In this document: piece by piece, positions 9,269 through 11,638 of the stretch
Layout: every line of letters begins with the position of its first letter
Numbering within the stretch: the first letter of the stretch is position 1
Assembly: GCA_963922205.1 (NCBI GenBank)
Contig: CAWUHX010000010.1
Coordinates: 2,294,001 to 2,358,000 of the forward strand
DNA from: Romanomermis culicivorax
Taxonomy: Eukaryota; Nematoda; Enoplea; Mermithida; Mermithidae
Direction: 5' to 3'
DNA length: 64,000 bases
The notes under the pieces: generated by a model
What the model was told of the DNA's origin: nothing
The model's database searches: none
Seen by the model: only the letters and a program-made list of their open reading frames with translations
Made by a program: the position numbers and the translations under genes

Positions 9269-11638
9269 ATGAGTGAACACTTACAAATTACGTTTGTACA
9301 GTTGTTTTTGATAATAAAATTGACCTTGGTAGCATCACTGTTTCTAGGGGTGAGTTTGTCAGCACCGGCGGCTCAGTATCAATTTTGCGGTCCCTCAAGA
9401 AGCGGACACCCACTTGAGTTACCCCAGCGTGTAGAGTGTAAACCACCGCAATCTTCATGGAGCCCGCGGCGCATGAATGTTACGGTGTATGTCCCTAGCT
9501 CAGACCCGATTACAACCACAGCATGGAAATGCACATTGCGCTCCCGCAAAGTCTGCACCAACACTGGTTTCTTCGGCTCTAGGGGCATCACTGCAGACGT
9601 CATCACCACTCAGCACTTAGCGCCTGCGGCATGCACGCTAGCACATCGCACTAAGATGTTTGGTTCACAAAAACTTGTCGGCATTCGCCCTGGCTTTTAT
9701 AGCACAAACCAAACATTGGAAGTGATGTACGAATGGTGTTGCAGCGACGTCTGCAAGACAGTGACTAACCTCTTCATCGAGGAGGGACAAGTCGCTTCGT
9801 GGAACGGCACTACAGCCCTAAGCACCTTAGGCGATGTAGGTGGATGCAGTCCCACTGCAGGCCAGTGCACTACTCTAGACGGGGTCATTGTCTGGCCTGC
9901 ACAAAACTTCACGGCGCGGTGTCATTATAACCCCAAGGGAAATTATACTGCGTCCATGTCAGGGAACCACGTCATCATCGATGATCTACAGGTTGCCCTC
10001 AAGATCCCGGGAAACTCCCGCGTCTTCCAACTGTGCCCAGAACTACGTTCCACCACAGTCGGGACGGATCAGGGTCTTCTCCTTCGCATCCACGGGAGAT
10101 ACAATTTGACCCAAAACTTGTTCAGAATGGCAAAGGACACCCGTCCCAATCCTGTCAATGCCAAACTGAACTATCTGGCTCAGCAGATCAAGGAGTCAGA
10201 AATTAACGGTTTCCGGTTCACGTGGCTTGAGCTCTGCTCTCACGCTCAACGCTATCTTGATCTGACTTGGCAGTTGCTTCGCTTCGACCCTACCTTGGGT
10301 GCCCGGGCATTCCTCCAGAGGAATGACCTGACAGCGGAATTCACAGGCGATGCGCTGACAATATGGCCGTGTCAGAAGGTCAACGCCACCTACGTTTACC
10401 ACTCGTACCGGGTGGGGAACGTTTGCTACAAGTACTTACCTGTACAGGTTGGCGGCACTATCTATTTTGCCACCCCCGGTGGTCCGGATCTCATTAAATC
10501 TAGCCCAATTGTGCCGTGTCATCACCACTTTACAGGGATTTTCCGAAATCGCTCGGGCTGGTTTACTGAGTCTGGCGCGGTCCATGTGAGCCACATCCCA
10601 CTGGAACTCTTCTGGAAGCAGCGTTTCAACATCACTCACTTTGAGGCACCGGCGCTCTTCCATGACCAGTTGGCGATGACCCCTTCAAACTTTGCCTTCT
10701 TTAAACAGTACGTTTACAAGACTGAGCAAATTGAAGCGGTACTCAACGGGCTGGTAAACTTTACCGCTGGTCTATCCCTGCAACCAGACGCTATTTACCA
10801 GGCCTTTGCAGGGGTAGGAACCGACATCAAGACCTCTCTGGAAGGTGTCGGTTTGGCAGCAAACCATGTTATTACGGGTCAACAACACACCCTCGCCCAG
10901 GGCTTGCATGCTGTCCTGAGCGGGCCGGTCCAGTTGATCTTTAACATCCTAATTACCCTGACGGTGCTGATCGGTGGCGGATACCTTGCCTATCTTGGTG
11001 TATCTTATTATCTCAGCTACCATCTGCGGAGCAAACAGGTCAGGTTCGTTAGCCGGTTCTCCCCGTTGGGTCTTTACCGCAAAGTCCAACACTGGATCGG
11101 TTTTCACTACGTGCAAAACGATGTGCCCTCCCAGCTTGACCGAATCACACCATGTTTCGTCGTGCTGCTGGATACCAAGGAAACTCCTGCTTTCCTCGAC
11201 ACGGGTTGCCCCCGCACTATCATTAGCCAACGTCTTCATAAGGCCTTGGCTAAAGAAAGTCCGAAGGCGGTCATGGCGTTCCAGCAACATCACAACTTTA
11301 ACCCATTGATGAGCATCAATGGTAAAGCCGTTCATACCATCCTTTCGGGACCATATGAAATCATGTTGCCCGGAAACCGCCAGCCGAACACACGGATCGA
11401 TATACATCTCCATGTGTGCAAGACTACGTCTCCCTTCTGGGCACCTGTTGACCTCATACTCGGACTGGACTTCTTAGAACAGTTCAAGAACATTATGTTT
11501 GACTACCAACGTAATGTTTGTCGGCTGGACGCGGTAGAATTACCCCTCCTGCTGACCACGCCGGAGATTGACCAGATCGACCCCTGGTGGGAGAACACCC
11601 GTGCTCTCTCGCGAAACTCACACAGGTCGGGATCATGA
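9269..11638 (+). CDS. Envelope-like glycoprotein with fused retropepsin, copy 1
   Basis: A 789-residue ORF from an ATG 29 bases after the gag stop. Residues 6-33 are a strongly hydrophobic signal peptide ending near SLSAPA. The ectodomain (about 34-550) is cysteine-rich with ten N-glycosylation sequons. Residues about 554-586 form one transmembrane segment with an IGGGYLAYLG core. The inner tail (about 590-789) is a retropepsin-like aspartic protease: DTG at 644-646 and ILGLDF at about 730. So this is a type I membrane protein with a cytosolic protease. It sits between gag and pol, whereas Metaviridae normally place env after pol. The glycoprotein family is not certain; a mononegavirus (chuvirus-like) origin is one possibility. 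The frame is continuous with upstream gag frame 2, so a spliced mRNA or a fusion could express it. It ends at TGA 11636-11638. Confidence 0.72.
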   Translation: MSEHLQITFVQLFLIIKLTLVASLFLGVSLSAPAAQYQFCGPSRSGHPLELPQRVECKPPQSSWSPRRMNVTVYVPSSDPITTTAWKCTLRSRKVCTNTGFFGSRGITADVITTQHLAPAACTLAHRTKMFGSQKLVGIRPGFYSTNQTLEVMYEWCCSDVCKTVTNLFIEEGQVASWNGTTALSTLGDVGGCSPTAGQCTTLDGVIVWPAQNFTARCHYNPKGNYTASMSGNHVIIDDLQVALKIPGNSRVFQLCPELRSTTVGTDQGLLLRIHGRYNLTQNLFRMAKDTRPNPVNAKLNYLAQQIKESEINGFRFTWLELCSHAQRYLDLTWQLLRFDPTLGARAFLQRNDLTAEFTGDALTIWPCQKVNATYVYHSYRVGNVCYKYLPVQVGGTIYFATPGGPDLIKSSPIVPCHHHFTGIFRNRSGWFTESGAVHVSHIPLELFWKQRFNITHFEAPALFHDQLAMTPSNFAFFKQYVYKTEQIEAVLNGLVNFTAGLSLQPDAIYQAFAGVGTDIKTSLEGVGLAANHVITGQQHTLAQGLHAVLSGPVQLIFNILITLTVLIGGGYLAYLGVSYYLSYHLRSKQVRFVSRFSPLGLYRKVQHWIGFHYVQNDVPSQLDRITPCFVVLLDTKETPAFLDTGCPRTIISQRLHKALAKESPKAVMAFQQHHNFNPLMSINGKAVHTILSGPYEIMLPGNRQPNTRIDIHLHVCKTTSPFWAPVDLILGLDFLEQFKNIMFDYQRNVCRLDAVELPLLLTTPEIDQIDPWWENTRALSRNSHRSGS

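What the first reader, a model, noticed from the sequence alone, without database searches (positions are those of the whole stretch)
9269..11638. Envelope-like glycoprotein encoded between gag and pol
Signal peptide, ten N-glycosylation sites, many cysteines and a single membrane span make this an envelope-type protein. Known Metaviridae and retroviruses carry env after pol; here it lies before pol, in the gag and pol frame, in both copies. This would be a new genome plan for an LTR retroelement.
Basis: partly seen in the sequence, partly recalled or inferred. Interest (0 to 1): 0.9.

Follow-up and report, generated by a model that had tools for sequence, protein, structure and literature searches.

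The report
Retroelement with envelope before its polymerase
A virus-like jumping gene carries a membrane-fusion envelope protein between its capsid gene and its polymerase gene, in the polymerase's reading frame, and relatives from other sources show parts of the same unusual arrangement.

Summary
The finding holds. Window 9269-11638 is an open frame with signal peptide, ten sequons, 16 ectodomain cysteines and one membrane span. Its ectodomain is a class III (herpesvirus gB / chuvirus type) fusion protein: Pfam Monjiviricetes_fusion E 3.8e-14; of 23 PDB matches of a six-sequence profile, 22 are named glycoprotein B and one ORF8, though only 3 are below E 0.01. It lies between a Ty3-type Gag and PR-RT-RH-IN.

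The two copies are one insertion doubled by LTR-LTR crossover, so not independent. Relatives give the support: P0009 has ectodomain-span-PR-RT-RH in one recorded protein, P0004 has Gag-Env, and P0008 has a span just before PR-RT-RH-IN, though the Env profile does not match it. Window, P0008 and P0009 share an RT clade. The order gag-env-pol is therefore not a local rearrangement.

Corrections: the last ~165 codons hold a probable extra retropepsin; in-frame TGAs interrupt Env/Pol and RH/IN here. How Env and Pol are expressed is inferred; I favour Pol as the cytosolic tail of Env.

The parts
1626..1629 (.). target site duplication CATA, left
   Evidence: same 4 bases follow the last LTR at 32521-32524
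1630..3058 (+). LTR 1 (1429 bp, TGTCAC...GTGACA)
3059..3082 (+). candidate primer binding site, begins TGG directly after the LTR
   Evidence: priming tRNA not identified
6698..8446 (+). gag: Ty3-type capsid (6866-7312) and Cys/His motifs (7739-7834, recognised from memory)
   Evidence: Pfam Ty3_capsid E 2.7e-6, 27.4 bits, just under its cut-off of 29.1; matches Gag of P0004, 23%, E 4e-12; motif places
8449..9240 (+). overlapping ORF in another frame (263 aa; first ATG 8527), function unknown
   Evidence: codon bias favours this frame here; no Pfam match at E up to 1; no match but itself among 127 proteins held
9269..9367 (+). Env signal peptide (residues 1-33, by hydropathy; cleavage not predicted)
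9368..10912 (+). Env ectodomain, class III fusion protein; Pfam match at residues 296-440
10913..10993 (+). membrane span (about residues 549-575), followed by basic residues
11138..11545 (+). PR1: probable extra retropepsin-like domain on the cytosolic side of Env
   Evidence: weak: Pfam gag-asp_proteas E 0.0065, below cut-off; DDI1 E 0.009; PR2 two-sequence E 0.001 at 20%
11636..11638 (+). in-frame TGA between Env-PR1 and Pol, inside a serine/arginine-rich run
12155..12424 (+). PR2: retropepsin of Pol
   Evidence: Pfam gag-asp_proteas E 1.1e-6, 29.6 bits, cut-off 28.2
13130..13612 (+). reverse transcriptase
   Evidence: Pfam RVT_1 E 8.1e-35
13799..14188 (+). RNase H
   Evidence: Pfam RT_RNaseH_2 E 8e-36, RT_RNaseH E 4.4e-35
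14570..14572 (+). in-frame TGA between RNase H and integrase
14633..15148 (+). integrase: H2C2 zinc finger and core
   Evidence: Pfam Integrase_H2C2 E 9.9e-21, rve E 4.5e-8; frame ends TAA 15836-15838
16360..17788 (+). LTR 2, shared; mosaic of LTR 3 (left) and LTR 1 (right)
24001..26370 (+). Env-PR1 ORF of the second copy
31092..32520 (+). LTR 3
32521..32524 (.). target site duplication CATA, right

Best explanation
This is a Ty3-like LTR retroelement of a clade that carries a class III fusion glycoprotein (herpesvirus gB / Monjiviricetes type) between Gag and Pol, in the same reading frame as Pol. Shown: the order Gag-Env-Pol here, and Env followed by PR-RT-RH in one recorded protein of a relative. 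Inferred mechanism: Env and Pol are made together from an Env start, by a spliced or otherwise subgenomic mRNA. The signal peptide puts the ectodomain in the ER lumen, the span stops transfer, and PR-RT-RH-IN hangs in the cytosol as the Env tail. Gag is made separately from genomic RNA and assembles at the membrane, so Pol enters the particle through Env and not through a Gag-Pol fusion; PR then cuts Pol free. The fusion protein would let particles enter other cells. In this copy two TGAs break the frame, either decayed or read through.
For: Class III by sequence: window E 3.8e-14, P0009 4.8e-17, P0006 3.3e-21, P0005 9.7e-14, P0004 1.2e-11 to PF24664, 5 of 6 family members. PDB profile hits at E up to 1: three named gB, one ORF8, one GP110; the last two are gB by recall; 22 named gB, one ORF8. 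The Env profile scores P0009 at 549 bits over residues 5-548, in one protein with PR at 635-726, RT at 968-1128 and RH. P0008 opens with a span at about 35-60, then PR-RT-RH-IN. Window, P0008, P0009, P0012, P0024 form one clade, SH-aLRT 100. Of these 5, three reach upstream of PR: two have a whole Env there (window, P0009), one a span (P0008). Net charge is higher after the span than before it in 4 of 4 proteins (0 to 4, 0 to 1, -1 to 6, 2 to 3), which fits cytosolic Pol. Sequons are in excess in the ectodomain: window 10 against 3.6, P0005 9 against 3.8, P0004 9 against 4.4.
Against: No RNA or protein data. P0007 has no Pfam match at E up to 1. The Env profile, at E up to 10, does not match P0008, so its stub is not shown to be Env. 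P0004 ends about 80 residues after its span with no protease, so there Env is joined to Gag, not Pol, in the recorded protein. In the window a TGA separates Env-PR1 from PR2-RT, and codon usage around it is worst in this frame. The charge step is only 1 in P0009 and P0008. P0009 sequons are 7 against 3.7, p 0.06, and P0008 Pol also has 10 against 6.0, p 0.06. P0009 as recorded lacks a signal peptide; its contig and that of P0008, both metagenomic, were not read, so chimeras or joined gene models cannot be excluded. Adding sequences to the profile weakened the best gB match (2.3e-5, 1.7e-4).
Confidence: 0.5

Rival explanations
1. One giant polyprotein: Gag, Env and Pol are read in one frame from genomic RNA, with an internal signal sequence that sends Env into the ER and signal peptidase cutting it from Gag, on the plan of alphavirus or flavivirus structural polyproteins (recalled).
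For: Gag, Env and Pol share one frame; the gag frame is open through to env. P0004 is Gag and Env in one protein. The gag frame stays open across the overlapping ORF in only 36 of 5000 permutations of that ORF's synonymous codons and 3 of 5000 resamplings from element codon usage; conversely the ORF stays open in 11 of 5000 permutations of the gag frame.
Against: Codon bias in 8450-9200 favours the other frame, so the gag frame there looks like an Arg-rich by-product. The permutation ignores codon-pair and dinucleotide preferences. Whether P0004 was read from one frame or joined over introns by an annotator is unknown.
Confidence: 0.22
2. Env is an alternative exon: Gag-Pol is made from an mRNA from which Env is spliced out, and Env from another splice form, so the Env-Pol frame continuity is a side effect.
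For: Cer1 of C. elegans makes a spliced mRNA that uses two frames of the element (PMC10309623, passages). Acceptor-like pyrimidine/CAG sites lie at 8439, 8504 and 11017, the last just after the Env span.
Against: The acceptor scan was a crude rule without a chance control and listed 10 sites in 8000-11200. P0009 as recorded keeps a long frame from Env into PR, which this model does not need.
Confidence: 0.25
3. Local rearrangement, assembly artefact or chance insertion of an envelope gene into one element.
For: Only one insertion is in the window; its two copies are a later duplication. The relatives' DNA was not read.
Against: P0009 has Env before PR-RT-RH and P0004 has Gag before Env, with Env 39% and 33% identical to the window's; target duplication and near-identical LTRs.
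Confidence: 0.03

Closest known systems
Metaviridae (Ty3/Gypsy), with env-bearing errantiviruses
   Same: LTRs TG...CA, Gag with capsid and Cys/His motifs, PR-RT-RH-IN order; env present in some members
   Different: ICTV profile puts Env downstream of integrase (PMC7879559, whole text); here it lies before protease, in frame with it. Errantivirus env is said to come likely from baculovirus (PMC12440569, part 1 of 5), here it is class III
Anakin (BEL/Pao element with chuvirus glycoprotein, mosquitoes)
   Same: LTR element with a Jingchuvirales-type glycoprotein
   Different: Anakin is BEL/Pao; three other Pao elements are described with the envelope downstream of the polyprotein (PMC7642597, passages). 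A 2023 survey found no clear capture of such glycoproteins by Gypsy elements (PMC10084718, passages and Results section)
Cer1 of C. elegans
   Same: LTR element with no stop between gag and pol and a spliced extra protein that uses a second frame
   Different: Its extra protein CERV is nuclear and serves RNA export; the paper discusses an older suggestion that part of it is envelope-like on limited similarity (PMC10309623, passages)
Monjiviricetes / herpesvirus gB class III fusion proteins
   Same: homologous domain over window Env residues 296-440
   Different: in those viruses the glycoprotein is not joined to a reverse transcriptase (recalled)
Foamy viruses (Spumaretrovirinae)
   Same: Pol reaches the particle without a Gag-Pol fusion (recalled)
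   Different: Env follows Pol and is a separate gene (recalled)

Membership tests
Metaviridae | Gag with capsid and nucleocapsid domains | tested here: met
   Ty3_capsid E 2.7e-6 but 27.4 bits, below its cut-off of 29.1; Gag matches 9 of 127 proteins held at E up to 0.01; Cys/His motifs at 7739-7834 judged from memory
Metaviridae | Pol order PR-RT-RH-IN | tested here: met
   broken by TGA at 14570
Metaviridae | long terminal repeats flanking the internal region | tested here: met
Metaviridae | primer binding site of 18 nt after the 5' LTR | tested here: inconclusive
   sequence begins TGG directly after the LTR; no tRNA matched
Metaviridae | polypurine tract of about ten A/G before the 3' LTR | tested here: not met
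   longest purine run in the 80 bases before LTR 2 is 6
Metaviridae | Env, where present, downstream of integrase | tested here: not met
   Env lies upstream of PR
Metaviridae | RT phylogeny against named reference elements | not tested
   the tree holds search hits and the second window element only, no reference set
Class III viral fusion proteins (PF24664) | profile match above the curated cut-off | tested here: met
   52 bits, cut-off 27
Class III viral fusion proteins (PF24664) | trimeric multidomain fold with bipartite fusion loops (recalled) | not testable with these tools
   structure prediction switched off
Anakin-type BEL/Pao elements | BEL/Pao polymerase | tested here: inconclusive
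   capsid match is to a Ty3 model, but no BEL/Pao reference was in the tree

The most novel reading that the evidence does not exclude
A lineage of LTR retroelements in which the whole polymerase is encoded and delivered as the cytosolic tail of a class III fusion glycoprotein, so that Env, not Gag, brings Pol into the particle; in this member the tail also carries a second protease.
Probability: 0.33. Interest if true: 0.92.

Novelty: new variant of a known kind. Interest (0 to 1): 0.8.

Why it matters
Gag-Pol-Env is the plan given for env-bearing Metaviridae (PMC7879559) and for simple retroviruses (PMC10309623, passages). A clade with Env ahead of, and in frame with, Pol would show that the plan can change, and makes a direct question testable: must Pol be packaged through Gag? 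It also adds a capture of a negative-strand-virus-type glycoprotein by a Ty3-like element, of which a 2023 survey saw no clear evidence (PMC10084718). Ten literature searches listed no paper whose title or abstract start describes this order. They cover open-licence PubMed Central text only; eight papers were opened; one search found 840 papers and listed 30, and of the listed papers that hold the phrase 'between gag and pol' only PMC10309623 was opened. So absence from print is not shown.

Tried and rejected
Structure prediction: switched off, so no fold search was possible and the fold rests on sequence profiles. Single-sequence search of solved structures gave 3 weak hits, best E 0.69. Relatives by DNA: env profile A1 gave none in viral contigs or genome contigs; clade Pol profile A5 gave none in viral contigs and two loci in genome contigs, 45% and 38% identical, not followed up; plasmids none. 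The host genome could not be searched: the genome search did not complete, so copy number and other copies are unknown. No tRNA by ARAGORN and no Rfam match at gathering score in the window. Troyka considered and rejected: it has CG...CG ends and 3-bp duplications (PMC12440569, abstract and part 1 of 5), here TG...CA and 4 bp. 'Both copies' as independent evidence rejected. TGA recoding against decay: not settled. LTR divergence 11 of 1429 predicts about 35 changes and 1.3 nonsense changes in 9099 coding bases since insertion, so two stops are no surprise under decay. In one search the PR2 query was cut in the wrong frame; its empty result is void.

Full report
What is there. The window holds one LTR element inserted once and then doubled. 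Three 1429-bp LTRs (1630-3058, 16360-17788, 31092-32520) flank two nearly identical internal regions, and CATA stands on both outer sides. Of 13 variable LTR sites, the middle LTR agrees with the right LTR at all seven informative sites from 6 to 602, with the left LTR at all four from 678 to 1255, and has two private changes. That is the mark of unequal crossover between the two LTRs of one insertion. The copies differ by 1 nt in the 9303 bases 6536-15838. They are therefore one observation.

The reading frames. Gag starts at 6698, Env at 9269, and the frame is open to a TGA at 11636; PR2-RT-RH follow to a TGA at 14570 and integrase to TAA 15836, all in one frame. Codon usage trained on Pol is best in this frame through gag except in the two steps at 7550 and 7700, where another frame scores higher; in 8450-9050 it is best in the frame of a 263-codon ORF of unknown function; from 9350 to 11450 it is best in the Env frame, with low scores to about 9800. 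In the step at 11600, the serine/arginine-rich run around the TGA, this frame is the worst of the three (-0.26 against 0.02 and -0.03), which is a result against continuous coding there.

What Env is. The first-stage features are confirmed. Pfam gives Monjiviricetes_fusion, 52 bits against a cut-off of 27. A search of about 5.8 billion proteins gave 2 relatives and a profile search 2 more; a fifth, P0009, came from the Pol search. Five of six family members, window included, match PF24664; P0007 does not. A three-sequence profile against solved structures gave 5 matches at E up to 1, best 2.3e-5: three named glycoprotein B, one ORF8, one GP110. A six-sequence profile gave 23, best 1.7e-4, 3 below 0.01: 22 named glycoprotein B, one ORF8. 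That ORF8 and GP110 are herpesvirus gB is recalled. A single-sequence search gave no meaningful hit. So this is a class III fusion protein by sequence; the fold itself was not modelled.

The order is inherited. The Pol search found 2948 proteins at E up to 1e-50 among 8000 scored; the best 120 were listed. An RT-RH tree of 122 rows puts the window with P0008, P0009, P0012 and P0024 on a long branch with SH-aLRT 100 (quick method, no bootstrap). P0009 is Env ectodomain, span, PR, RT and RH in one recorded protein of 1424 residues (549 bits to the Env profile). P0008 begins with a span and runs through PR, RT, RH and IN, but the Env profile does not match it, so it supports a membrane span before PR and no more. 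P0012 and P0024 begin after the region in question and say nothing. Among the 127 proteins held, the Env profile matched P0004-P0007 and P0009 and no other at E up to 10; P0004 and P0005 are in the profile. P0004 joins a Ty3-type Gag (23% identical, E 4e-12) to Env (33%) in one protein of 1186 residues and ends after the Env tail. Its Pol was not seen. No DNA of any relative was read.

How it may work. Env precedes Pol in frame in the window and in P0009, and net charge rises across the span in 4 of 4 proteins examined, by 1 only in P0008 and P0009. If Env-Pol is translated as it stands, PR-RT-RH-IN sits in the cytosol on the Env tail. I infer that this is how Pol is made and packaged. Rivals are a Gag-Env-Pol polyprotein and removal of Env by splicing; neither can be excluded without RNA. 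The gag frame stays open over the overlapping ORF more than codon permutation predicts (36 of 5000), which favours the polyprotein rival somewhat.

Sequons. Ectodomain counts against shuffles: window 10 against 3.6 (p 0.0016), P0005 9 against 3.8 (0.008), P0004 9 against 4.4 (0.019), P0009 7 against 3.7 (0.06). Other parts: window Pol 10 against 6.9 (0.15), window Gag 5 against 3.6 (0.29), P0009 after the span 6 against 4.7 (0.32), P0008 after the span 10 against 6.0 (0.06), P0004 Gag 5 against 7.3 (0.88).

A second protease. After the Env span the window has a retropepsin-like stretch (PR1), then the TGA, then PR2. PR1 support is weak: E 0.0065 in Pfam (below cut-off), 0.009 to DDI1, 0.001 to PR2 at 20% identity. 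P0008 and P0009 show one retropepsin stretch each in Pfam; P0009 also has a match just below cut-off to the spumavirus protease model at 857-937, between PR and RT.

The stops. The recorded proteins P0009 (Env to PR) and P0008 (RH to IN) run through the junctions where the window has TGA. LTR divergence predicts 1.3 nonsense changes since insertion, two are seen. Decay after insertion is enough to explain them; read-through is not excluded.

Host. Two RNA polymerase II large-subunit exons lie at 60585-60926 and about 63280-63534. The second scores 157.6-159.1 bits with 11 chains and 115.8-128.8 with 9 others, and lower with 7 more; that the first group is mostly of mammals and the second of yeasts is recalled. 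This fits an animal, which I did not determine further.

Literature. ICTV places Env downstream of integrase in Metaviridae (PMC7879559, whole text). Anakin is an LTR element with a chuvirus glycoprotein and is BEL/Pao (PMC7642597, passages). A 2023 survey saw no clear capture by Gypsy elements and reported one event with two such insertions in Nematoda (PMC10084718, passages and Results section). Bdelloid elements carry env-like and exonuclease ORF3s (PMC5408684, passages). Also seen: PMC12440569 (abstract and part 1 of 5), PMC9963324, PMC9040795 and PMC10309623 (passages). Ten searches listed no report of this order, with the limits told under why it matters.

Noticed in passing
window 1630-32520: Tandem element made by unequal LTR-LTR crossover: the middle LTR is a clean mosaic with the breakpoint between LTR positions 602 and 678.
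   Followed up: yes
window 4218-5254 (and 18950-19986): The 3.6-kb leader before gag holds 12 plus-strand copies of TGACGTC(A/T)GCAA (3 of them with one mismatch), the first ten spaced 62-68 bases, with A and T mostly alternating; 31 matches in the window, both element copies counted, against 1.0 expected. Could be a packaging or transcription array.
   Followed up: partly
window 8449-9240: A 263-codon ORF overlaps the open gag frame; codon bias favours the ORF, yet both frames stay open more than permutation predicts. No relative among the 127 proteins held.
   Followed up: partly
window 11138-11545 and 12155-12424: Two retropepsin-like domains in one element, the first on weak evidence, on either side of a serine/arginine-rich run.
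   Followed up: partly
window 40655-53733, minus strand: A second, different Ty3-like element with internal stops and a 178-base direct repeat at 97% near its ends; downstream of pol it has two extra ORFs, one with a very weak 3'-5' exonuclease resemblance (PF01612 E 0.16), recalling the DEDDy ORF3 of bdelloid elements (PMC5408684, passages).
   Followed up: partly
window 60585-60926 and about 63280-63534: Exons of the host RNA polymerase II largest subunit.
   Followed up: partly
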